In this document: positions 711 through 14,140 of the stretch, in pieces
Position numbering within the stretch: position 1 is the stretch's first letter
Layout: each line of letters opens with the position of its first letter
Source of the DNA: Marinomonas sp. SBI8L
Lineage (GTDB): Bacteria; Pseudomonadota; Gammaproteobacteria; Pseudomonadales; Marinomonadaceae
Length of the DNA: 64,000 nucleotides
NCBI RefSeq assembly: GCF_001624705.1
Contig: NZ_JSEO01000001.1
Location: 186,001-250,000, forward strand
Direction of reading: 5' to 3'
The notes under the pieces: model-generated
What the model was told of the DNA's origin: nothing
What the model saw: the letters and a program-made list of their open reading frames with translations, nothing else
The model's database searches: none
Program-made: the position numbers and the translations under genes

Positions 711-979
711 TTAAGGAACCTGCGATTAAGTAACCTCTTCTCAGTCTTTTCAGAAAAAGCGTCAAGCAAGGCGTCACTTTGATGTAATGTAGGTACCTTT
801 CGAAAAGGGACAACACAGAGTGACGCTTTTTCTGAAAGACCCGCAGGGCGTGGCCTAAAAGCCCTATCTTTATGTTGAGGTGCTTATCAATAGAATGACT
901 ATTAAGTTCACACCTCGCCATCAATCTAGGCACTTTTATTACACGCTGAGACGGGAGGACTTATTCGAAGGTTCCTTAA
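711..979. mobile_element. MITE-like non-autonomous element
   Basis: The 21-base ends are inverted copies matching at 19 positions: 711-731 begins TTAAGGAACCT and 959-979 ends AGGTTCCTTAA. If the outer TTAA is excluded from the repeat it becomes a 4-bp direct repeat at both ends, as expected for a target duplication. Inside is a second perfect 17-bp inverted repeat (748-764 with 821-837), so much of the element can fold. It has no transposase. The minus-strand open frame inside (628-933) resembles the small spurious proteins often predicted in such multicopy elements; that is recollection, not a search. The right end lies inside the 3' end of the LysR gene. Confidence 0.75.
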
Positions 980-1841
980 TCATATAATCCCAAAAACTGT
1001 TTGCGATAGCTGAGGTATTGCTTTTTAAGCGAATAAGGTAAATCGGTAATACAACATTAGAGGCAAAATCTTCCACCTCTATCATCTCGACACTCCCCAC
1101 TTTTAGCTCTTTTTCAACCATATGATAAGGCAATCGAGACCAAGCTAAGCCTGACACAATTAGCCTCTGTTTAATCATATAGTCATTAACCGTCCAACGT
1201 TGGCCATTAGGAATCACATTTAACCTTTCGATTGGGTGCAATGAGCCTGAATCTTCAATTAAAACTTGAGGGCGGTTTTTTAGTTCAGCTTGAGGAATGA
1301 TTCGCTGTGTTTGGTTTTCAAGATAATGAGGGGCTGCCACTGTCACTAATTTAAGTTTGGCTATTTCTACAAACTCAAACTCTTGTCCTAAGCCATAATT
1401 TGGGCTAATTGCTATATCAGCTTTACCTGATTGCAAAGACTCTAATACGCCAGATAGATGCTCTGTACTCATGCTTAAATGCATTTCTGGGTGCTTTTCG
1501 ACAAACATTTGTAGCTGCACTAAACCTTGTAACTGCACACAAGATGCACTTAGCGTCAGGGCCAAATTTGGACCTATACCTGATGCTAGCTGATGACCCA
1601 ATGCTTCTAGTCCTTGCATCTTTTCTAGCGTGATACGCGCTTCTTGATAAAACACCTTACCTTCTGGCGTAAGCTCAGGTCGATAAGCATCTCGGCTGAG
1701 TAATTGCACTTCAAACTCTTGCTCTAAACTTACAATCGCAGCGCTTATGGTTGATTGAGTTTTATGTAAAAAATTAGCGGCAGCTCTAAAACTTCCCTGC
1801 TCAACCACGGCCACAAAAGCATAAAGATGGACATTATTCAT
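939..1841 (-). CDS. LysR-family transcriptional regulator with element-derived C-terminus
   Basis: Standard LysR architecture and length (300 aa). An N-terminal winged helix-turn-helix covers about residues 1-60 (LYAFVAVVEQGSFRAAANFL, then STISAAIVSLE), followed by a periplasmic-binding-protein-like effector domain from about residue 90. It starts 160 bp from, and divergent to, the TSUP exporter gene, the usual arrangement for a LysR regulator and its target, so it probably controls that exporter. The last 12 codons and the TAA stop (939-941) lie within the right terminal repeat of the MITE-like element, so the native C-terminus has been replaced by the tail KEPSNKSSRLSV. Overall length is normal, so the protein may still work. 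The effector is unknown. Confidence 0.92.
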   Translation of the reverse strand: MNNVHLYAFVAVVEQGSFRAAANFLHKTQSTISAAIVSLEQEFEVQLLSRDAYRPELTPEGKVFYQEARITLEKMQGLEALGHQLASGIGPNLALTLSASCVQLQGLVQLQMFVEKHPEMHLSMSTEHLSGVLESLQSGKADIAISPNYGLGQEFEFVEIAKLKLVTVAAPHYLENQTQRIIPQAELKNRPQVLIEDSGSLHPIERLNVIPNGQRWTVNDYMIKQRLIVSGLAWSRLPYHMVEKELKVGSVEMIEVEDFASNVVLPIYLIRLKSNTSAIANSFWDYMIKEPSNKSSRLSV

Positions 1842-2001
1842 GATCTATAAAACCTTTCATCTTAATCAAAAAATAGCGTTATCTTACGATCATATTGCAA
1901 ATTAAAATAGGCTTCATTCAAATTCACCAGATTCCTAGTCTTTCGAGCTTCGCTCATAAACTAAGGCAGATATTTCATTTTTAGAGGATACATTAACCTT
2001 T

Positions 2002-2727
2002 ATGGATAACAGCCAAATCGTATTGCTTCTTGCAGGTTTTATTACTGGTATTTCTAAGTTTTCAACCGGTGGGATGGGGTTCATTATTCTCACACTTACT
2101 TTGACAGCATTTCCAAGCGCAGAAGCAATTGTGGTGTTATTACCCATGTATTTAGTGGCAGATATGCTTGCAGTAAGTAGTTATCGTACTGATGTATCTT
2201 GGCCAAGCTTAAAACGTTTATTACCATTGGCGGCACTGGGTATTGTGCTCGGCTCATATCTACTTGCCCATATTGATGCCAATAACTTTAGTAAGTTGCT
2301 AGGTGTCATTATTCTCTTCACCTTAGGTTTAGGCACTTACCTAGAGTGGAAAAAAGTCAGTTTTATGCAAACTAAATCTGTCTCTCGCTCTATGGCTTTT
2401 TTTGCTGGCGTTATTAGTATTTTGGCAAATGCTGCAGGCCCAATCATTAGTCTCTACTTATTAGAACAAAAGCTGAGTAAAAACAGCTATGTTGCGACGC
2501 GGGCTTGGGTCTTTTTAATCATTAATATCATCAAGATTACCGTGGTCATTTCTTTAGGTATTCTCAGTTGGCCTTTAGCTAAGCAAAGCCTGATTACCCT
2601 ACCAGCCCTTTTAGTGGGTGCCGGCATTGGTTATTTACTGCTTAAACGACTTAACCTTAAACAGTTTAAAACCTTGATTCGAGGAATGACCTGTATAGCA
2701 GCGGTTAAGTTGATTTTTATGTCTTAG
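2002..2727 (+). CDS. TSUP (TauE/SafE) family membrane transporter
   Basis: A 241-aa, very hydrophobic protein with about eight predicted membrane segments arranged as two similar halves, typical of the TauE/SafE family (usually 240-270 aa). The first half carries GFITGISKFSTGGMGF and the second GVISILANAAGPIIS; these paired Gly-rich re-entrant motifs mark the family. Members export or import sulfite, sulfoacetate, or other organosulfur or C2 anions across the inner membrane. The ATG follows an AGAGGA about 14 bases upstream, a somewhat long spacing. The divergent LysR gene is its probable regulator. The substrate is not evident. Confidence 0.85.
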   Translation: MDNSQIVLLLAGFITGISKFSTGGMGFIILTLTLTAFPSAEAIVVLLPMYLVADMLAVSSYRTDVSWPSLKRLLPLAALGIVLGSYLLAHIDANNFSKLLGVIILFTLGLGTYLEWKKVSFMQTKSVSRSMAFFAGVISILANAAGPIISLYLLEQKLSKNSYVATRAWVFLIINIIKITVVISLGILSWPLAKQSLITLPALLVGAGIGYLLLKRLNLKQFKTLIRGMTCIAAVKLIFMS

Positions 2728-3247
2728 GGAAGGAGAAAACAAATCACGTCTTCTAAAACAAGTGGGTAAAAGTACCTACAAAAGCACCACTTTTTTAATA
2801 GAATCATTATTAAATTACTTTGTTTAACCATAGGTATGAAAGGCAGAGTTTTTTCATTTATAGGTTGTAGCTTCAACCGATTTCCAAATAAAAAACCTCT
2901 TCTAAATACAAAAAAAACCACTAAACAAAAATTAAATAAATTAACTTTAATTAAAGCAATAAATATAACAAAACCTTAGGCATCATTATATTTATACATA
3001 CCTATAACCTAAGTTATAAAATAGAAAACACTCTATAAAAATATCTAAATTCGCTTTCTTTTATAAAAAAATTATATTTTAGATGATGCTAAATTAGGTA
3101 TTTGATGGCTTAGTTTTGCAACACAGTGTTGCAAAAATATATCTACCAAAAAAACAAGCCTCTCATAGGATCCTTAAAAATCTTATTTTGATAATAAAAA
3201 ATCAAAAAGATTAAATTAAAGTTCCAAATTTAAGAGAGATATTAAAA
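2728..3247. other. AT-rich intergenic leader upstream of the type I secretion operon
   Basis: 520 bases without a convincing gene. It holds a possible weak terminator for the exporter gene (AAGTGG at 2760-2765 pairing with CCACTT at 2787-2792, then a T-run), a long very AT-rich stretch, and one perfect palindrome at 3114-3136. The high A+T content is consistent with silencing by a nucleoid protein of the H-NS type (inference). Confidence 0.5.
3114..3136. promoter_or_regulatory. Perfect 11-bp inverted repeat, candidate operator
   Basis: TTTTGCAACAC (3114-3124), one central base, then its exact reverse complement (3126-3136). It lies 111 bases before the ABC transporter start, has no T-run after it, and is the only strong symmetry in the leader. 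It therefore looks more like a dimer-binding site than a terminator. The binding protein is unknown. Confidence 0.5.
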
Positions 3248-5071
3248 ATGGAAGTCAAAAAAAATGTACGCCTACTTAAAACAAACATTTCTCGTTCGTT
3301 AATAATCACACTATTAATTTCAGCATTCATTAATATACTATTATTAACCGCTCCTCTTTATATGATGGCTATTTTTGATAAAGTCATGATGAGCTTTCAG
3401 TTAGAAACACTTTACTTAATCAGCATTTTAGCTTTTTTATCATTAGTCGCTTATGGCGTGATTGACTGGGGAAGATCTCAAGTTTTATTTAAATTAGGAA
3501 ATTGGCTAGAAAACCAACTTACCCCATTAACCTTAGAAGCAAGTTTAACGGCAACCCATAATGGTAAGCATATTGGCGCACAAGGAATTCGTGATTTAAC
3601 ACAAGTTAAATCTTTAATTGGTGGTCGAGCATTACTTCCTATTCTTGATGCCCCTTGGGCTTGTATATTCTTGATCATACTTTTTAGTATGAATGTCTGG
3701 TTAGGCATATTCACATTAATCTCAGCCGTTATTTTATTTGGCTTAACACTGATTAGTGAGTTTAGTACGCGAAAGCATCAAACCAACTTTCAAAACAAAC
3801 AAAACCAAAGCCAAATCTGGTTAGATCAAAGTATCAAAAATGCGGATGAAATCCTTGCACTAGGTATGAATGACGCATTCATTAAACGCTACCAAGAAAA
3901 GCGCTTAGATGCACAAGATGATTACCTATTATCTCAAAACCGCTCTTCAAGCCTACTAGCTCTTGCTAGAAATATTCGAATGCTGTCTCAAATCGGTATT
4001 ATGGGGCTTGCTGCCTTCCTACTATTAAAAGGTCAGGTGTCTCCAGGAATGGTTGTCGCAGGCTCCATCTTAATGTCTCGCGCTTTGAGCCCAATAGAGC
4101 AACTGATGGGATCTTGGGCTCAGTTATTAACGGGTCGTCACGCGTATTCGAACCTAGTCTCTTTATTTAGTGAACATTCACCAGTATCAGCTGAAAAAGC
4201 AATACTCCTAAAACCTAAAAATACACTATCAGTCAAGCAGTTAACGATTTCGAAACAAGTAAAAGCGGCTAACAATTATCAGGCTAAGCATCTAGCTAGT
4301 TACTTGTTACATGGGGTTCATTTTGATTTAGAGAAAGGAGATATTTTAGCGGTTTTAGGCCAGTCTGGTGCAGGCAAAAGCACCCTAAGTAAGGCTCTCG
4401 TAGGCTTATTAAAACCCACAACAGGAGAGGTCAGATTAGACGGTAACGAGCTAAACCAATGGACATCTAAGAACCTTTCTAATCATGTGGGTTATCTGCC
4501 CCAAGAAGTCAATTTAGCCCCTGCTACCATTTGGGAAAATATCGCACGCCTAGATGCCAATGCAAAAATAGAAGATGTGTATCAAGCCGCGAAAAAAGCG
4601 GGCGCGCATGCTTTCATACAGCAATTGCCTGATGGCTATAACACAAAATTAACAACAAATACGCCACAACTCTCTGGCGGACAAAAACAGAGCATAGGTC
4701 TTGCAAGAGCTTTATATCAAGACCCTTTTCTTCTGGTTCTTGATGAACCAGATTCTTTCTTAGATACCCAATCCTGTGACGCCTTAAAAACAAATCTTAA
4801 GGCATTAAGCCAAGATGGTTGCATCATTGTTTTCATCAGTCACAAGCCAAATATGATTGATATTGCATCCAAAGCAATTGTACTCGATAAGGGTCGCTTG
4901 ATTGGAAAAGGATTAAAAGAAGATGTCCTAAGTCGTTTGAAAAAACAAACAACCTCTTCTCAAAAACTTGATTTAGCAGTCCCCTCTATTCAATACCAGT
5001 ATGGTTATAAAATGAAATTAGAGGCTCAAGAAAATATAAACACAAAAAATAATAAAATAGGTCAAGCATAA
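3248..5071 (+). CDS. Type I secretion ABC transporter, permease and ATPase (PrtD type)
   Basis: 607 aa, the usual length for PrtD/AprD-type exporters, starting directly with membrane segments and so without the C39-peptidase-like domain of HlyB or bacteriocin exporters. About five or six membrane helices occupy residues 20-290. The nucleotide-binding domain has Walker A GQSGAGKST (about 371-379), Q-loop LPQEVNLAP, signature LSGGQKQ (about 476), Walker B LLVLDEPDS (about 496) and the switch His in FISHKPN. It would power export of the RTX protein encoded downstream, straight through both membranes. A GAGAGA ribosome site precedes the ATG. The stop overlaps the next ATG by one base (TAATG), so the adaptor is translationally coupled. 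Confidence 0.93.
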   Translation: MEVKKNVRLLKTNISRSLIITLLISAFINILLLTAPLYMMAIFDKVMMSFQLETLYLISILAFLSLVAYGVIDWGRSQVLFKLGNWLENQLTPLTLEASLTATHNGKHIGAQGIRDLTQVKSLIGGRALLPILDAPWACIFLIILFSMNVWLGIFTLISAVILFGLTLISEFSTRKHQTNFQNKQNQSQIWLDQSIKNADEILALGMNDAFIKRYQEKRLDAQDDYLLSQNRSSSLLALARNIRMLSQIGIMGLAAFLLLKGQVSPGMVVAGSILMSRALSPIEQLMGSWAQLLTGRHAYSNLVSLFSEHSPVSAEKAILLKPKNTLSVKQLTISKQVKAANNYQAKHLASYLLHGVHFDLEKGDILAVLGQSGAGKSTLSKALVGLLKPTTGEVRLDGNELNQWTSKNLSNHVGYLPQEVNLAPATIWENIARLDANAKIEDVYQAAKKAGAHAFIQQLPDGYNTKLTTNTPQLSGGQKQSIGLARALYQDPFLLVLDEPDSFLDTQSCDALKTNLKALSQDGCIIVFISHKPNMIDIASKAIVLDKGRLIGKGLKEDVLSRLKKQTTSSQKLDLAVPSIQYQYGYKMKLEAQENINTKNNKIGQA

Positions 5072-5577
5072 TGTTTTTTGAAAAGTCTCTTCTAAACGAA
5101 ATCAAAATACCACTTTATATTTGCTTAAGCGCCATTGCTATTTTTATTGGCCTATTTCTCACTTGGTCTTATTTTGCACCTACATCAGGAGCAGTAATTG
5201 CATCAGGAGAAACTCGGACAAATAGGTCTAATCACCTTGAAATTGTGGCACAGCTGAACCCTTTAGATATTGACCAGGTCGATATAGGAACCCCTGTTCG
5301 ATTAAGTTTTTCATCTTATAGTTTCAAACAACAAAAACCAATTCATAGACAGGTTCAATATATATCTGAAAGCACTGAGTTTGATCCTCTAACAAACCGA
5401 TCCTACTTCATTATTAAGGTGCCATTAGAGCCAGAAAACCTTAAAGAAGAAAGTCAAAATATCAAATTGAGATCTGGTTTACCTGTCGAAATTTTTATTA
5501 AAACTCAAAAACGAACTTTATTTGAATATTTAATGGATTCAATAATCAACTTAAAGGAGAAAGGAATGCGAGAATAA
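5071..5577 (+). CDS. HlyD/PrtE-type membrane fusion protein lacking the hairpin and lipoyl domains
   Basis: 168 aa against about 430-450 for normal type I adaptors. A short cytoplasmic tail and one membrane helix (about 15-34) lead into APTSGAVIASGETRTNRSNH, matching the start of the periplasmic part of PrtE/HlyD. The next residues (LEIVAQLNPLDIDQVDIGTPVRL onward, abbreviated) match the C-terminal beta-barrel region: a diD.v..G pattern, then SGLPVEIFIKTQKRTLFEYL, the usual PGMPVEV.I.TG.RT..EYL ending. The roughly 260 residues holding both lipoyl halves and the coiled-coil hairpin are absent in one clean in-frame gap. It is either a decayed adaptor or a minimal one. It sits between transporter and substrate genes, coupled by TAATG. 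Confidence 0.8.
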   Translation: MFFEKSLLNEIKIPLYICLSAIAIFIGLFLTWSYFAPTSGAVIASGETRTNRSNHLEIVAQLNPLDIDQVDIGTPVRLSFSSYSFKQQKPIHRQVQYISESTEFDPLTNRSYFIIKVPLEPENLKEESQNIKLRSGLPVEIFIKTQKRTLFEYLMDSIINLKEKGMRE

Positions 5578-5645
5578 AAAATTTAGACTAAATAAAAAAA
5601 ACTAAAAACATTAAAAGCTAACGGATAAAAATTTGGAGAATACAA

Positions 5646-7580
5646 GTGACTAAACATACATACTCTGGAAGTGGTGGTGATGATTCTAAAACGGTTGACC
5701 GTTATTACTACACAACCGATGATGGTTATTCTAAAAACCATGAATGGTATGCCTATATGTACGGCGGCAACGATTATTATGAATACGCAGGCGCTAATCG
5801 CTTAGCTAGTGGTAAGCATAATTTAGATGTTTATGCTGAAATGGGTGGTGGAAATGACACCTTCTTAGCAAGAAACTGTTACTACCCTGCCACTAACTTT
5901 AATATCATAGTTTATGGGGGGGATGGACAAGATACCTTACAAATTAACTGTGATGATAATCGTGATCATTGGCTTTATGGCGAAGATGGCGAAGACACCT
6001 TACTCGGTGATGGGGGCAGAGAGACACTCTATGGCGGGGATGATGATGATTACCTTGATAGTGGTGCGGCAGATGATTACCTCTATGGTGAAGCCGGTAA
6101 CGACGTTTTGTTTGGCGGTAAAGATCAAGATTATCTAGATGGTGGCGATGGTAATGACTTTATTGACCCAGGTAAACGAACTGGCTCTGACATTGATGAA
6201 GTTTATGGCGGAGCAGGTAAAGACATTGTTACCTCAGGTGACTTTGATGATACGGTCGCAGGTACCAATGCCGCTGTCGATTGGGAAACTTGGGGGGTAG
6301 GACAAGCCATACTAAGGGTTTCTCTTTTAGGTGCCTCAACAGCCACTCAAGGCAATCCGCTCGTTTCCGCCATGTACAGTACAGGTACCAGTGCGCTCAT
6401 GACAGCCGTGAACAGCCTTATGACATCGGGTGTTGAATCTGAAAGTGAGGTTTCTCAAGCAGACTATGTGGACTTTTTAGACTTTGATGAGCAAGATATT
6501 TTTGTGGTCACAAGCTCTGATGAGTTTGGCGATGTTCGAGGTGTACCTAGTACGTCACATGGGGATTTCACTCTTAATGCAGATCAAACAAGTAGTGGCA
6601 ACGGTGGTATCGTAGCTATTTTAAGCCCAGGCTATTCTTTTCAAAACTATATCAGCAATAACCTACAAAGCAGCTCTGTCTCCCTTAACACAGCTTTAGG
6701 CCAAATTTATGAAGTAGTCGATAAAACTCGCTTAGAAATTACACGAGATGGTAACGATTATTATGATGGGGATGGTAGTCAATACGACCCAAGCACAATA
6801 GATTCTCAATTAAGTGCCTTTAATGTCAGCACGAATACTAGTGCCCAAGATTTCTTTAATGGACTTGAGTTGGAAGACGGTGACTCTCTATACCTTTATG
6901 GTGCTTATGCTGGTCGCTTTTTCCAGGGAGCTAATATTGCCGATACAGGTAATGGTACCGACAGATATATTGCAGGAACAGATAATGCAGACACCTTAGC
7001 GGTACATGGTTTTACAGACTATGACGACACTGCCATTACAGGACGATTATATGGCATGGATGGTAATGATCTTCTCATTGGCGCTGGCAGTACAGACTAT
7101 ATCTATGGAGGAAGAGGCTCTGACATCTTAGTAGGCCATGGAGGACAAGACCACTTATGGGGCGATGGTGATAATGCTTCTGGTAATGATGCTGAGTTTG
7201 AGGGCAGCGACACAGACCTTTTTGTCATTGATAACACTTTAAACCGTATCAGAGACTTTAATTATGATGCGGATGGCAATGGTAACCAAGGCCACGACAT
7301 CATCATGATAAAGCTTGGAGAAAATTACGACCAAAACGTCCATGCTTCGCCTTATCAGGTAGACCATGGTACATGGCAAAGAATCTGGTGGGAAAGCGCT
7401 GAAGACCCCTCTGGCACTTGGGTTCAACTAGATAATAGTCTATATCAATTTTATTTCAGTGAACCATTACAATGTAGTACAGATGGTACAGATGAATACT
7501 TTATTGCCGCCTCCAGTGACCCAAGCCTTTTGCCAACGGACGCAATCGACGGTGGGTGCTGGGAGTCCTACTTTGATTAA
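5646..7580 (+). CDS. RTX calcium-binding protein, probable type I secretion substrate
   Basis: 644 aa, strongly acidic. Nonapeptide RTX repeats (GGxGxDxxx and variants) form two blocks, about residues 111-182 and 469-510, separated by about 280 residues I do not recognise. After the second block, DTDLFVIDNTLNRIRDFNYD resembles the segment that usually precedes a type I secretion signal. There is no N-terminal signal peptide and no HExxH protease motif. Four cysteines (in ARNCYYP, QINCDDN, LQCSTD and GGCWES) are unusual for RTX proteins. The start is GTG, supported by GGAG at 5635-5638 with 7-base spacing. The transporter genes directly upstream make it the likely cargo. Function (adhesin, S-layer-like or enzyme) is not evident. 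Confidence 0.85.
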   Translation: MTKHTYSGSGGDDSKTVDRYYYTTDDGYSKNHEWYAYMYGGNDYYEYAGANRLASGKHNLDVYAEMGGGNDTFLARNCYYPATNFNIIVYGGDGQDTLQINCDDNRDHWLYGEDGEDTLLGDGGRETLYGGDDDDYLDSGAADDYLYGEAGNDVLFGGKDQDYLDGGDGNDFIDPGKRTGSDIDEVYGGAGKDIVTSGDFDDTVAGTNAAVDWETWGVGQAILRVSLLGASTATQGNPLVSAMYSTGTSALMTAVNSLMTSGVESESEVSQADYVDFLDFDEQDIFVVTSSDEFGDVRGVPSTSHGDFTLNADQTSSGNGGIVAILSPGYSFQNYISNNLQSSSVSLNTALGQIYEVVDKTRLEITRDGNDYYDGDGSQYDPSTIDSQLSAFNVSTNTSAQDFFNGLELEDGDSLYLYGAYAGRFFQGANIADTGNGTDRYIAGTDNADTLAVHGFTDYDDTAITGRLYGMDGNDLLIGAGSTDYIYGGRGSDILVGHGGQDHLWGDGDNASGNDAEFEGSDTDLFVIDNTLNRIRDFNYDADGNGNQGHDIIMIKLGENYDQNVHASPYQVDHGTWQRIWWESAEDPSGTWVQLDNSLYQFYFSEPLQCSTDGTDEYFIAASSDPSLLPTDAIDGGCWESYFD

Positions 7581-7593
7581 GCCATAAACGGAT

Positions 7594-7618
7594 AATACGA
7601 ACAGGGAAAGTTCGTATT
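7594..7618 (+). terminator. Stem-loop after the RTX gene
   Basis: A 9-bp perfect stem (AATACGAAC / GTTCGTATT) with a 7-base loop sits 13 bases after the RTX stop. The T-run is poor, so termination is likely but not certain. Confidence 0.5.
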
Positions 7619-7646
7619 TAGATAGTTCCCAATAAATAGTTTTTAC

Positions 7647-7970
7647 CTATTCAAACTCATGATTTGCAAGCGGAATAATATTGATAACAGGCTCTTCGTA
7701 TGGGTGGATATGACGAATAGCTTTGAGCGTCGCGGCGACCTTGTCTTTGTCACAACGCACCTCGATACGAACTTCATGACCAAAGTTAATCTGGTTCTTC
7801 TCCCCTGTGACAGGCGTAGATGCTTGGTTAGGTCGCCAAAAGCCCGAAATATTAACAATCGAGATAACACTGTCATAATTACCAACTATGCCTGCTTTCA
7901 TTTCAATGAGCAGATCACGTATCTTGGTTATCTCTGTTTCTGGGGCGTAGATTTCTAATTTGTATTGCAT
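7647..7970 (-). CDS. Small Nif3/YqfO-type CutA-like domain protein
   Basis: 107 aa. The sequence (YKLEIYAPETEITKIRDLL, then GNYDSVISIVNISGFWRPNQ and a late HPYEEPVINIIPL) matches the stand-alone version of the ferredoxin-like domain found inside Nif3-family proteins such as YqfO, where HPYEEPV is a hallmark. In pseudomonads and relatives it is a separate small cytoplasmic protein of about 105 aa. Its biochemical role is not established; metal or nucleotide binding has been suggested for the fold. It is a single gene convergent with the RTX gene. Confidence 0.8.
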   Translation of the reverse strand: MQYKLEIYAPETEITKIRDLLIEMKAGIVGNYDSVISIVNISGFWRPNQASTPVTGEKNQINFGHEVRIEVRCDKDKVAATLKAIRHIHPYEEPVINIIPLANHEFE

Positions 7971-8247: not shown

Positions 8248-9711
8248 ATGCCTCTTTTTAAGAGAAATACCCATAACAAGTTAGCTAAATTATCAGGCAT
8301 GTCTGTACTAGCCTTGACTCTGTCGGCTTGTCAAAGCTTGCCAAGTTCTGATGATGAGCCTTCGAATCTTAATAGTTTGGCAGCCTCTGAAGCGCAATCA
8401 GAAAAAGTGCAATGGCAATCCTCACCGATTTCAGGTGAAGCCACCAGCCTAACTGAGTTAATTGATGATAAAGGCTTAACGGCTTTGATTGAGCAAGGAA
8501 TCAGCGCTAACCCAGACCTTCAACAAGTGTTACTTACTCTTAAAATACGTCGGGCCCAGTTGAACCAAGCGGATGATAGTTTGCTACCAACAGTGGACGC
8601 TTCATTTAAAGTCAACAATGATGAAGGGAAAAAAAATACCTATACGGGCGGCATTACGGTTAGTTGGGAAGCTGACTTATGGTCTCAAATAGCGGATGGA
8701 AATAAAGCCACAGCGAAAGCCTTTTCAAGCCAGCAAGCGCTTTATCAAGCCTCATTAGATTCCTTAGTTGCTCAAATCATGTCTGCTTGGCTAGGGATAA
8801 TTGCTCAATCAAGAGCATTAAAGGTTGAAGAAGACAGAGTTGAGCTCTTAGCAAAAAACGAATCCCTATTATTAAACCGTTATAAAAATGGTAATGGTGA
8901 TCTTGAAGGATTAGATGGTGCAAGAAGCTCTTTATCCAGTGCTAAAGAAAAGGTCGAACAATATCGCGAAGACTTAGCGATTAACCAGCGTAGCTTGATG
9001 CGTCTTTTGGGGTATAACAAAATTGAAGATATTCAAATGCCAACAGACTATCCTGAGGTGCTCATTCCTTTAGCGCAATTACCTGAGCAAACCTTAGCGC
9101 GTCGCCCTGACCTTATGTCTGCATTTTATGACATTGAGCAAGCAGATTTAGACGTTCAAGTTGCTTATAAAGACCTACTCCCTTCACTGAGTTTAAGTGC
9201 CAGCTTAACCGATGTGGCTTATTCTCCTACTGCTGCACTTTTTACGTCACCAGTATGGGGTCTATTAGGACAGCTAACCATTCCTTTGTTCCAGCAAGGA
9301 AAGCTAGACCTTGCGATTGATGTAGCTAAATATGAAGCAGCACAAAGTTATCAGATCTATAGAGCGACTCTCTTAGATGCGGTATTTGAAGTTGAAAATG
9401 CCATCAGCCTCGAGAAGTCTCTAAGCCTTCGCCAAACTCACCTTGAAGATGCCTTAACTGCAGAAAAGAACAACCTACTGCAATATCAAAAGAACTTTAA
9501 AAACGGCAGTGTTGATATTGTCGATTTGCTGGGTGTGCAACAGGATGTATTTAACTTAATTGCCTCATTGGATGACCTTATTTATCAGCGTCTTGATAAT
9601 CGTATTACCCTTGGCTTGGCCCTTGGATTATCTGGCCAAGTCGCTAACACTCAAAGTAAAGATCAAAACACTAAGGGCAAGTTTTCTGCCTCAAATGGAG
9701 TATCACCATGA
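8248..9711 (+). CDS. RND efflux outer-membrane lipoprotein (OprM/NodT family)
   Basis: 487 aa. A lipoprotein signal ends in LTLSAC with Cys28 as the lipidation site. Two tandem outer-membrane-efflux-protein repeats follow, each rich in long helices; ARRPDL near the middle (LPEQTLARRPDLMSAFYDIE) is the classic family motif. It forms the trimeric outer-membrane channel of a tripartite efflux pump. It overlaps the adaptor gene by 4 bases (ATGA), so outer-membrane protein, adaptor and pump form one operon in that order. It could in principle also serve the type I exporter upstream, which has no channel gene of its own, but the operon structure argues for the RND pump. No strong ribosome site is visible before the ATG. 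Confidence 0.92.
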   Translation: MPLFKRNTHNKLAKLSGMSVLALTLSACQSLPSSDDEPSNLNSLAASEAQSEKVQWQSSPISGEATSLTELIDDKGLTALIEQGISANPDLQQVLLTLKIRRAQLNQADDSLLPTVDASFKVNNDEGKKNTYTGGITVSWEADLWSQIADGNKATAKAFSSQQALYQASLDSLVAQIMSAWLGIIAQSRALKVEEDRVELLAKNESLLLNRYKNGNGDLEGLDGARSSLSSAKEKVEQYREDLAINQRSLMRLLGYNKIEDIQMPTDYPEVLIPLAQLPEQTLARRPDLMSAFYDIEQADLDVQVAYKDLLPSLSLSASLTDVAYSPTAALFTSPVWGLLGQLTIPLFQQGKLDLAIDVAKYEAAQSYQIYRATLLDAVFEVENAISLEKSLSLRQTHLEDALTAEKNNLLQYQKNFKNGSVDIVDLLGVQQDVFNLIASLDDLIYQRLDNRITLGLALGLSGQVANTQSKDQNTKGKFSASNGVSP

Positions 9712-10973
9712 CACGCAAAGTCTCCCAATTTGCCTTTTTAATCGCCTGTTTATTGGTGTCCGGCCTAATTTTTATTTTTGTCTCAAACCAACTTGAAGCG
9801 AAGAAGAACCAAACACGCCCTAAAAAAGCCAGTGTACAAGTGCTGCCTCAGGTCTCTGTTATACCAACAAAAGTGGGAGATTATCAGCCTGTCATTGAGG
9901 CATTTGGTAGTGCTGAACCCAAATACTCTCTTACCTTAGAAGCGCAAAATTCAGGGCAAATCACCAATTTAGCCAAAGAGTTTGAAGCAGGTAAAAAGAT
10001 AAAAGCAGGAGAGCTACTTGCCATTATTGCAGACACGAGCTACCAAGCTAGTGTGGCAACCCAAGAATACGCCGTTACCAGCGCGGTAGTCGCGTTAAAG
10101 GAAGAGTTAAGAAGTGCGGAGCAAGCGCTTGATGAATGGAATGCATCAGGGCTTTCTGGCCAACCTAGCTCAGATTTAGTATTAAGAGAACCGCAAATCG
10201 CAGAGGCAAAAGCAGCCCTTTTAGATGCTAAGGCCAGCCTTAAAGAAGCAGAACAAAACCTTGAAGATACTCGCATCAAAGCACCATTTAATGGACTCGT
10301 TGTTAGCCGTGAAATCGTGCCCGGTAGTTATGTACAAGCAGGCACAGAGATAGGCACAATTTACAACACAGACCGCATGGATATTAAGATTGCCCTTTCA
10401 GCCAAAGATTGGGCTAAATTGCCTAGCATTGAAACCATGCAAAAAGAACGTTGGCCTGTCACTTTAACGGATGTTGAAACCCAAGCTAAATGGCAAGCGT
10501 ATGTGCTTTCTGCAGATAGCCATAGAGATAGTAGTACTCGCCTTAGAACCTTAGTCATCGCTGTTGATAATCCATTACAGCAAACTCCTGCACTTTATGC
10601 AGGCAGCTTTGTGAAAGCCAGCTTAAAAGGGATTTCTATGGGCAAACTATGGCAATTACCTAGCACAGCCTTTAGTCAGAAAAGCCAAGTATGGTATTTA
10701 AATCAGGAAAATAGACTCGCTGCATTTAGTGCTGATCCTGTCTTTAGCGCTAACGGACAAGTGTATATTACCCCTCCTACCGATTTACAAGCAGATGAAC
10801 AGCGGGTCCTGATTCGCCCTTACAATAGTTATTTAGAGGGTATGAAGGTTAAAAGCAATTTAGATGCTAGCCAGCCCCAAGAGAACTCAAGAAAGTTATT
10901 AGCACAGAAGTCTGGCTCACAGGAAAACTCAGCGAATCCAAGCCAAGCCTTGAATGTGAAAGGAGATAACTAA
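9708..10973 (+). CDS. RND efflux periplasmic adaptor subunit
   Basis: 421 aa. An N-terminal membrane anchor (about residues 8-27) is followed by a beta-barrel start (VSVIPTKVGDYQPVIEAFGSAEPKY), a first lipoyl half with GKKIKAGELLAIIADTSYQA, an alpha-helical hairpin (about 110-190), the second lipoyl half (DTRIKAPFNGLVVSREIVPGSYVQAGTEIGTIY, given here in part) and a C-terminal beta-barrel. This is a complete HlyD/AcrA-fold adaptor, in contrast to the shortened one at 5071. It bridges pump and outer-membrane channel. The ATG overlaps the upstream stop and its own stop overlaps the next start (TAATG). Confidence 0.92.
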   Translation: MTRKVSQFAFLIACLLVSGLIFIFVSNQLEAKKNQTRPKKASVQVLPQVSVIPTKVGDYQPVIEAFGSAEPKYSLTLEAQNSGQITNLAKEFEAGKKIKAGELLAIIADTSYQASVATQEYAVTSAVVALKEELRSAEQALDEWNASGLSGQPSSDLVLREPQIAEAKAALLDAKASLKEAEQNLEDTRIKAPFNGLVVSREIVPGSYVQAGTEIGTIYNTDRMDIKIALSAKDWAKLPSIETMQKERWPVTLTDVETQAKWQAYVLSADSHRDSSTRLRTLVIAVDNPLQQTPALYAGSFVKASLKGISMGKLWQLPSTAFSQKSQVWYLNQENRLAAFSADPVFSANGQVYITPPTDLQADEQRVLIRPYNSYLEGMKVKSNLDASQPQENSRKLLAQKSGSQENSANPSQALNVKGDN

Positions 10974-13900
10974 TGTCATCTGCCCACCCTCATGGCCCGA
11001 ACTCGGCGAACTCCCCAAGTGGCATTATCCCTTGGTTCACGCATAACCCGGTTGCAGCTAATCTACTAATGCTGCTTGTGATTGCCCTTGGTGCTTTGAC
11101 CATGGGAGATTTACGTAAAGAAGCCTTTCCCAGTACCGAGCCAGATACCATCACCATTAGTATTGATTATGACAGTGGCTCTGCACTTCAAGCCGAAGAA
11201 GGAATTGCGATTACGTTAGAGAATGAGTTGGAAACGGTTGAAGGCATCAAGACCATGACAACGACATCTAACGCCAATGGAGTAAGCGTTAGTTTAGAAA
11301 AACTGTCTGAGTATGACATTGATGTACTCATGACAGATGTGAAGGCCAAGGTAGATACAATTTCTAGCTTTCCTTCTGATGCTGAGAGCCCTGTTCTAGA
11401 AAAGGCTGCACGTGAAGAGCACGCCCTTTGGCTACAGCTTTATGGTGATGTTGGCCGACATACACTACAAAACCTTGCGACTGATTTAAAAGCTGACCTA
11501 CTGGCTAATCCTGATATTGGTCAAGTAACGATTTCAGGTTGGTTAGATGCCACTATCAAGGTAGATATTGATGAAGGCCGTTTGCAATCTTACAACATGA
11601 CCTTGAGTGATGTAGCGGACGCCATTAACCAAGAATCAACCAATGCCAATACCGCCACCCTTAAAAATGCGGACTTATACCTTCAAATCCAATCTTCTGA
11701 ACAAGCTTACCAAACCCGTGATTTTGCCGAACTAACCATCAAAACCTTTAGCGATGGTAGCCGCCTTTTGTTATCCGATGTGGCGGTTATTCGAGACACC
11801 TATGATGAAGATACAGCGGTACTCTCTCGCTTCAATAATGAAGACAGTATTGCTATTCAAGTCATTACCACAGGTCTGACTGACATTTCTGATTCTGTGA
11901 TTGCCGCCAAAGCTGTCAGTCAAAAATGGTTAGAATCAGGCAGGTTACCAACAGGAGTAGAACTTGCTACTTGGTATGACCGCAGTGAAGCCATTAACCA
12001 GCGTTTAGACCTACTTATTGATAATGCAATAAACGGTGTGTTTTGGGTCTTCTTGATGTTGGCGATCTTTTTGAACTTGAGTGTTGCCCTCTGGGTTGCC
12101 TTAGGTTTGCCGTTTATCTTCTTTGGTACCTTATTTCTAATGGGAGATGGCTTTTTAGGCATGAGCCTAAACGCCTTTACCACCTTTGGATTTATCATGG
12201 CCCTTGGCATAGTGGTGGACGATGCTGTTGTAGTAGGAGAAAGTGTTTACAGCGAAAGGTCTAAACATGGAGATAATATTGCCAGTACAATTAGAGGAAC
12301 CTTAAGAGTCGCTGTCCCCACCTTATTTGGCGTATTTACTACGGTTGCAGCTTGTTTTGCCTTATCCAATATTGAAGGCAGATTAGGTACTCTTTATGCT
12401 CAATTTGGCACTGTTGTTGCCGTTTGCTTAATGCTTTCTATCGTTGAGTCTAAACTCATACTCCCTGCTCACCTAGCCCACTTAAATACTCGTCCAGCCA
12501 AGAGCCGTTTTTGGCCTATGATGTTAATTCGCTGGGTACAAAACTTGGCAGATAAAGCCTTAAGTTTCTTTACGCAACGTATTTATAAGCCAAGTATCGA
12601 TTTTGCTCTCGCTAATCGCTATGGAGTCTTGATTCTCTTTGTCGGTATTTTTGTTCTTGTCGCTAGCATGCCATTTACCGGTGCAATTCGGGTAAGCTTT
12701 TTCCCCAGCATTCCTGGAGATACAGTACGCGCCAGCCTTAATATGCATAATGATGTCAGTTATGGGCAGACTCATCAGGTACTAGCCCGTATGGAAGCAG
12801 CGGCTTATAGCACCGAACTCAAACTAAGAGATGAGGCAAGCACAGATAATGGCATTATTAACCTGCAAGTCAGTTCTAGTAATGATCAATCTGGCAGAAT
12901 CACCATTGAATTAAATTCGGACCTATCCTATAGCGCCAAACAATTCGCCGCCGCTTGGCAAAAAAGTATTGGGCAAGCTGAAGGTGCTAAAAGCTTAAAA
13001 GTTCAAACCCGTCGAGGCAGCATTGACGCTCTTCGTATTGAACTAAGATCTTCAAGTAATGAGGAATTAAGTGAAGCTTCCCAATTACTCAAAGACTACC
13101 TGTCTTCTATCCCTGCTGTCAGCGGTATCGAAGATAATGCAGCACTGTCTCAATCACAGCTAAATTTGAGCTTAACTGAACAAGGTAGAGCATTAGGCTT
13201 AACCACTCAAAGCCTATCTAGCCAAGTGTTAAGTTACTTTGATGGCAGTAAGGTTCAATCTTACCAAAGAGACAGTGATGAAGTTGAAGTACAACTAGGT
13301 TACCCAGATAGTTCTGAGGCGAGTATGACTGACCTCATTGATACTCAAATCCGTTTGGACGATGGTAATCAGGTTCCTTTGAGTGCCTTAGTGAATATCA
13401 GTTCGGGATTTACTGAACAAGAGATTGTACGGATTGATGCAAAACGTGCCGTTTATATTAGCTCTGAATTGAATAAGGACCTTTTATCTGCCACAGAATT
13501 AGTCAGCCAAATTAAATCAGACTTGGTCCCTGAGTTAGAGCAACAATTTGCAAGCCTTGATATCAGCTTTGCAGGTGAAGCAAAGGAGCAAGCTGAAACT
13601 CAGTCTTCCATGTTAGTTGTTTTTATCATGGCGATGCTGATTATTTATATTCTCTTGGCTATCCCGCTTAAATCCTATGTACAGCCATTTCTCATTATGA
13701 TGGCAATCCCTTTTGGCATCATAGGTGCCATGTTAGGTCATTGGTCTAATGATTTGGCGTTAGGAATATTATCTTTGAACGGCATCATCGCCTTAAGTGG
13801 CGTTGTGGTGAATGATAGCCTGCTATTGGCATCACGCTTTAATGAGCTTAAGCAAGAGACTAACTCAATCAAAGAAGCGATCAACCAAGCATGCCGCGAT

Positions 13901-14140
13901 AGAGTAAGAGCGGTATTGTTAACCTCTATCACCACCTTTGTTGGCTTAATGCCTTTATTAGGTGAAACCTCTCGTCAGGCACAGTTCTTAATTCCTGCGG
14001 CAGTATCTCTCGCTTATGGGATCTTGTATGCGACCGTGATTACTCTAGTGCTTATTCCTGCACTACTTATGGTACACGAAGATATCAAGGCGTTAATTGA
14101 ACGTTTTCGCCAAGGCGTATTAGGGGTAAACCCAAAATAA
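10973..14140 (+). CDS. RND efflux transporter, inner-membrane pump
   Basis: 1055 aa, typical AcrB/MexB-fold length, with twelve expected membrane helices in two repeats and two large periplasmic loops. The first helix follows WFTHNPVAANLLMLLVIALG. The TM4 motif GIVVDDAVVVGE contains the paired Asp residues of the proton relay; the second half repeats the pattern as GVVVNDSLLLASR. The N-terminal loop residues (FPSTEPDTITISIDY) place it with the broad hydrophobe/amphiphile exporters, not the CusA-type metal pumps, where Met clusters would be expected. It is the last gene of the three-gene operon; no local regulator is adjacent. The substrate is unknown. Confidence 0.93.
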   Translation: MSSAHPHGPNSANSPSGIIPWFTHNPVAANLLMLLVIALGALTMGDLRKEAFPSTEPDTITISIDYDSGSALQAEEGIAITLENELETVEGIKTMTTTSNANGVSVSLEKLSEYDIDVLMTDVKAKVDTISSFPSDAESPVLEKAAREEHALWLQLYGDVGRHTLQNLATDLKADLLANPDIGQVTISGWLDATIKVDIDEGRLQSYNMTLSDVADAINQESTNANTATLKNADLYLQIQSSEQAYQTRDFAELTIKTFSDGSRLLLSDVAVIRDTYDEDTAVLSRFNNEDSIAIQVITTGLTDISDSVIAAKAVSQKWLESGRLPTGVELATWYDRSEAINQRLDLLIDNAINGVFWVFLMLAIFLNLSVALWVALGLPFIFFGTLFLMGDGFLGMSLNAFTTFGFIMALGIVVDDAVVVGESVYSERSKHGDNIASTIRGTLRVAVPTLFGVFTTVAACFALSNIEGRLGTLYAQFGTVVAVCLMLSIVESKLILPAHLAHLNTRPAKSRFWPMMLIRWVQNLADKALSFFTQRIYKPSIDFALANRYGVLILFVGIFVLVASMPFTGAIRVSFFPSIPGDTVRASLNMHNDVSYGQTHQVLARMEAAAYSTELKLRDEASTDNGIINLQVSSSNDQSGRITIELNSDLSYSAKQFAAAWQKSIGQAEGAKSLKVQTRRGSIDALRIELRSSSNEELSEASQLLKDYLSSIPAVSGIEDNAALSQSQLNLSLTEQGRALGLTTQSLSSQVLSYFDGSKVQSYQRDSDEVEVQLGYPDSSEASMTDLIDTQIRLDDGNQVPLSALVNISSGFTEQEIVRIDAKRAVYISSELNKDLLSATELVSQIKSDLVPELEQQFASLDISFAGEAKEQAETQSSMLVVFIMAMLIIYILLAIPLKSYVQPFLIMMAIPFGIIGAMLGHWSNDLALGILSLNGIIALSGVVVNDSLLLASRFNELKQETNSIKEAINQACRDRVRAVLLTSITTFVGLMPLLGETSRQAQFLIPAAVSLAYGILYATVITLVLIPALLMVHEDIKALIERFRQGVLGVNPK

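What the first reader, a model, noticed from the sequence alone, without database searches (positions are those of the whole stretch)
5071..5577. Type I secretion adaptor with the whole coiled-coil hairpin missing
Normal HlyD/PrtE adaptors are about 430-450 aa and need a long hairpin to reach the outer-membrane channel. This gene keeps the membrane anchor and the C-terminal beta-barrel in one clean frame of 168 aa, tightly coupled to the ABC gene. The frame is intact and its context is preserved, which suggests it is still used. If so, this would be a short-adaptor system, perhaps using a second adaptor or reaching the channel differently, or delivering cargo only to the periplasm.
Basis: partly seen in the sequence, partly recalled or inferred. 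Interest (0 to 1): 0.72.

Follow-up and report, generated by a model that had tools for sequence, protein, structure and literature searches.

The report
Secretion adaptor missing its bridging arm
A bacterial protein-export operon carries a bridge protein cut down to its membrane anchor and small barrel, without the arm that normally reaches the outer membrane, so the exporter is probably disabled or changed rather than a proven new kind of secretion system.

Summary
Window 5071-5577 encodes 168 aa: the anchor and first barrel strand of a type I secretion (HlyD/PrtE) adaptor (profile positions 29-68) joined through 5 residues to the C-terminal barrel (339-452). About 270 positions, both lipoyl halves plus the hairpin, are gone. 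A low-confidence model still matches adaptor barrels and the resolved part of HlyD on HlyB. PrtD-type ABC and RTX cargo genes look intact. The conservation test gave nothing in favour. The operon lies in a 4.9 kb segment absent from a sister genome. The short form was not seen among listed matches elsewhere; 37 of the 39 related ABC loci opened have a full-length adaptor frame, one is split, one cut. The ABC's nearest relatives are only 37-38% identical, so no close ortholog shows the ancestral state. ABC and barrel both sit on long branches, the barrel more so. Best reading: an in-frame deletion in an acquired operon left a stub that may still dock on the ABC but cannot reach TolC, so one-step secretion is probably lost. 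A working short-adaptor system is unproven but not excluded.

The parts
2728..7646 (.). Segment present here and absent from the sister genome G046 (gain here or loss there; ends approximate)
   Evidence: G046:C9 carries window 976-2717 (86%) and 7650-7970 (78%) with 39 bp between them
3248..5071 (+). PrtD-type T1SS ABC transporter, 607 aa, intact
   Evidence: TIGR01842 523.5 bits over its cut-off of 510.15; Walker A, signature and Walker B motifs (recalled) read in the translation
5071..5577 (+). Short HlyD/PrtE-type adaptor, 168 aa
5080..5175 (+). N-terminal membrane helix, residues 4-35
   Evidence: helix 4-35 in a low-confidence model; profile match from residue 9
5215..5229 (+). Junction, residues 49-53, where about 270 profile positions are missing
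   Evidence: two-domain match
5230..5574 (+). C-terminal barrel part, residues 54-168
   Evidence: 101.4 bits on profile 339-452
5646..7580 (+). RTX-repeat protein, 644 aa, presumed cargo
   Evidence: PF00353 in 5 stretches, E 8.8e-14; same strand, 68 bp downstream

Best explanation
The gene is the product of an in-frame internal deletion of a normal T1SS adaptor, within an operon found so far only in this genome. Shown: the anchor and first barrel strand are joined directly to the rest of the barrel, and the lipoyl-hairpin module is missing. Inferred: that a deletion made it; that the protein still inserts in the inner membrane and may still ring the ABC transporter, as HlyD's resolved part does in the HlyB/D complex; and that without an arm it cannot meet a TolC-type channel. 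The ABC could at most engage its RTX substrate without a sealed path outward, so one-step secretion is probably lost and the operon is impaired.
For: Two-piece profile match with 270 positions missing. Full-length adaptor frame downstream of 28 of the 29 ABC loci opened and 9 of the 10 new ones; the two exceptions are a split frame and a stretch that ends inside the gene. Apart from this genome's own short row, listed rows with frames under 300 aa were 3 of 149, 2 of 149 (capped list) and 0 of 42; of these five, one is a split adaptor, one has broken frames, one is cut by a contig end, one starts at base 51 of its contig (fetched but not opened), and one starts 129 bp from a contig end and still has lipoyl and hairpin-end sequence. 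The operon is absent from sister G046. The barrel stands further from its relatives than any of the other 37 (1.61 times their mean distance; the ABC, also the furthest, 1.38 times) and keeps 6 of 11 columns conserved at 90% (others 0.92 on average, minimum 0.57). Substitutions at the HlyD hairpin tip abolished or nearly abolished HlyA secretion (PMC3391258, abstract and passages).
Against: The frame is clean over 168 codons in spite of a long branch; the cut sits at a domain joint; start overlap, ABC motifs and cargo frame are intact; the ABC is itself an outlier (z -4.7 against -2.6 for the barrel), so divergence is not special to the adaptor. No close ortholog with a full-length adaptor was found that would show the ancestral state.
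Confidence: 0.55

Rival explanations
1. A working short-adaptor system: the anchor-plus-barrel protein forms a collar on the PrtD-type ABC and the RTX protein is delivered to the periplasm, or to a channel that comes down to the collar.
Confidence: 0.25
2. The short protein is helped in trans by the genome's full-length adaptor, in a mixed ring or by replacement, with one of the genome's TolC-type channels.
For: One adaptor over the TIGR01843 cut-off (C14, 416.3 bits) and three channel genes over the TIGR01844 cut-off.
Against: That adaptor is 26% identical over residues 52-168 and lies beside its own ABC in a LapB/LapC-like cluster (Lap names recalled, no family scan run on them).
Confidence: 0.1
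3. Assembly or sequencing artefact: a full-length adaptor collapsed in a draft genome.
For: Draft of 69 contigs; reads cannot be examined.
Against: None of the repeats of 16 bases or more listed for 2600-7750 covers the junction at 5215-5229; the only other strong adaptor match in the genome is dissimilar; an artefact would have to be in frame and at a domain joint.
Confidence: 0.08

Closest known systems
HlyD/PrtE/LipC-type T1SS adaptors (TIGR01843; LipC 5nen, HlyD 8dck and 7sgr)
   Same: N-terminal anchor, barrel sequence, place directly after the T1SS ABC gene; barrel matches 5nen at E 4.4e-9, 8dck only at E 0.03
   Different: lipoyl halves and hairpin absent; 168 aa against 430 aa or more for most relatives measured; under the family cut-off
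BesA, hairpin-less RND adaptor of Borrelia burgdorferi
   Different: BesA keeps lipoyl and membrane-proximal domains, is anchored by lipidation and works with an RND pump (PMC3807786)
PrtD/PrtE/PrtF-type secretion operons
   Same: PrtD-type ABC followed by an adaptor gene and an RTX protein gene
   Different: adaptor shortened inside; no channel gene within the operon; the OEP gene at 8248 opens what looks like a separate RND operon

Membership tests
TIGR01843 type I secretion adaptor | score over the curated cut-off of 208.65 bits | tested here: not met
   93.8 bits
TIGR01843 type I secretion adaptor | N-terminal anchor plus C-terminal barrel | tested here: met
   profile match in both parts; helix and strands in a weak model
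TIGR01843 type I secretion adaptor | lipoyl domain and long helical hairpin | tested here: not met
   profile positions 69-338 missing
TIGR01843 type I secretion adaptor | gene next to a T1SS ABC gene | tested here: met
   stop codon of the TIGR01842 gene overlaps the adaptor start codon
TIGR01843 type I secretion adaptor | recruits a TolC-type channel | not testable with these tools
   needs binding or secretion assays
BesA-like hairpin-less adaptors | hairpin absent, lipoyl retained | tested here: not met
   hairpin absent but lipoyl absent too
TIGR01842 PrtD-type ABC transporter (neighbour) | score over the cut-off of 510.15 bits | tested here: met
   523.5 bits

The most novel reading that the evidence does not exclude
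A minimal T1SS adaptor of anchor and barrel only forms a collar on a PrtD-type ABC transporter and supports export of an RTX protein without bridging to the outer membrane, which would be a two-component, periplasm-delivering form of type I secretion.
Probability: 0.2. Interest if true: 0.75.

Novelty: new variant of a known kind. Interest (0 to 1): 0.36.

Why it matters
If the stub works, it would show that the bridging arm can be dispensed with for ABC-driven protein export and would separate the adaptor's two jobs, serving the ABC and recruiting the channel, in a natural protein. If it does not, it is a deletion in an acquired operon and of little wider interest.

Tried and rejected
A scan of genome contigs with the ABC protein found 9 loci, all with the best segment in the ATPase half (query 322-576), eight from Gram-positive bacteria and one Polaribacter; not informative. 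The viral contig scan found no relative and the phage collection had no match at E 0.01. Of 295 plasmid records with an adaptor match 20 were listed; three that looked colinear over 95-97% of the query were opened: two lie inside full-length genes of 1323 and 1338 bp, and the third record has no annotation and was not read further. The cargo matched 4 plasmid records, best E 2e-16 at 24.8% identity over 64%; the two opened show no annotated secretion genes within 6 kb, in an incomplete gene table. In 293 genomes of the order, 8 others matched the cargo, each over part of residues 77-281. Promoter-like (17, shuffles 18.6) and terminator-like (2, shuffles 4.1) sites are no more frequent than in shuffles.

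Limits of the survey: one genome per species; the genome sets overlap; the list is capped at 150 rows and may omit weaker short forms; the ABC searches scored only the best few candidates per genome; the loci opened are the closest to the window's ABC, not a random sample. TIGR01843 at a loose threshold also rings in 14 of 14 control genomes, over its cut-off in 1.

Dropped or redone rows: the loci L013, L076, L087 and L093 were read on the wrong strand; the last three were redone (lengths there are stop to stop), and L013 was ignored in the alignment. L082 (split adaptor) was left out of the barrel set and; L160 (cut) was left out. An untrimmed version of the barrel score (97.3 bits against a mean of 163.6 for 81, lowest but for the L082 fragment) was replaced by the trimmed one.

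Full report
What is there. The ORF at 5071-5577 is real: 168 aa from ATG, starting on the last base of the stop codon of the ABC gene at 3248-5071. NCBIfam assigns its C-terminal 115 residues to the end of the type I secretion adaptor model, far under the family cut-off. Five residues stand in for 270 positions. These hold both halves of the lipoyl domain and the whole coiled-coil hairpin (domain names recalled, positions read from the alignment). So the finding is right and slightly understated.

Neighbours. The ABC gene is over the cut-off of the PrtD-type model. The 644-aa protein at 5646-7580 has five stretches of RTX repeats and is presumed to be the cargo. The OEP, HlyD_3 and AcrB-like genes at 8248-14140 look like an RND efflux operon with an adaptor of its own and are not taken as T1SS parts. 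Elsewhere in the genome one adaptor is over the TIGR01843 cut-off and three channel genes are over the TIGR01844 cut-off.

Uniqueness. Adaptor searches covered 144 relatives, 398 genomes of the phylum and 185 of the class; the sets overlap. Listed rows apart from this genome's own short row number 149, 149 (capped) and 42. Frames under 300 aa were 3, 2 and 0 of these (lengths of the first two counted). They are a split adaptor in G119, a fragment cut by a contig end in G138, a match starting at base 51 of its contig in G058:C15 (not opened), an adaptor with broken frames in G595, and in G539 a frame starting 129 bp from a contig end that still has the end of the hairpin and a lipoyl half. None of the four opened is the anchor-barrel form. 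The shortest complete-looking adaptor noticed is 319 aa in G058, with a short hairpin. Downstream of the ABC genes most like the window's, 28 of the 29 loci opened and 9 of the 10 new loci have a single full-length adaptor frame; four of these 37 frames run off the end of the fetched stretch.

Origin. The sister genome G046 has the flanking sequence at 86% and 78% identity with 39 bp between, where the window has 4.9 kb. One of 144 genomes, this one, has an ABC match at E 1e-120, with up to nine candidates scored per genome. The best elsewhere are 37-38% identical. The operon is therefore best seen as acquired, though loss from the sister is not excluded. The adaptor gene has the lowest G+C of the nine genes measured, 0.333.

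Is it decaying? Scored leave-one-out against relatives, the barrel is lowest of 81 (98.6 bits against a mean of 137.4, next lowest 102.8, z -2.6) and the ABC is lowest of 30 (573.6 against 770.1, z -4.7). On trees of 38 sequences the window protein's mean distance to the others is 1.38 times theirs for the ABC and 1.61 times for the barrel, the largest in both. The barrel keeps 14 of 25 columns conserved at 80% and 6 of 11 at 90%; the ABC keeps 100 of 143 and 83 of 98; each is the lowest of its set. Both genes come from a divergent lineage; by tree distance the adaptor has moved somewhat more, by score the ABC stands out more. A frame still clean over 168 codons argues against long neutral drift (inference); it fits a recent deletion or continued use equally.

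Function. Substitutions at the HlyD hairpin tip abolish TolC binding and abolish or nearly abolish secretion (PMC3391258, abstract and passages). BesA is the known hairpin-less adaptor, but it keeps the lipoyl domain, and its authors propose contact between that domain and the exit duct; they mention similar sequences in spirochetes and rarely in proteobacteria (PMC3807786, abstract and results section). With neither part, a bridge to TolC is unlikely. I therefore favour an impaired operon at 0.55 and leave a working short-adaptor system at 0.25. My searches (open-licence library only, judged by titles and abstract beginnings) listed no paper on a T1SS adaptor lacking lipoyl and hairpin; in the passages shown of two reviews, PMC8277102 (less than half of its text is held) and PMC4446572, the only hairpin-less adaptor was BesA.

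Noticed in passing
L114 3353-4766 (G119:C1): A T1SS adaptor split into two overlapping frames of 353 and 123 aa beside an intact PrtD-type ABC and a TolC-like gene (name recalled), in a one-contig genome.
   Followed up: partly
L148 3270-4229 (G058:C10): A 319-aa adaptor with a much shortened hairpin but lipoyl kept, next to a 549-aa ABC protein; a possible natural intermediate.
   Followed up: no
window 5646-7580: The RTX protein has a 24.8% identical relative over residues 148-558 on a Phaeobacter inhibens plasmid, with no annotated secretion genes beside it.
   Followed up: partly
window 2728-3247: About 520 bp of A+T-rich DNA (G+C 0.29 for 2501-3500) upstream of the ABC gene, inside the segment missing from the sister genome.
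   Followed up: no
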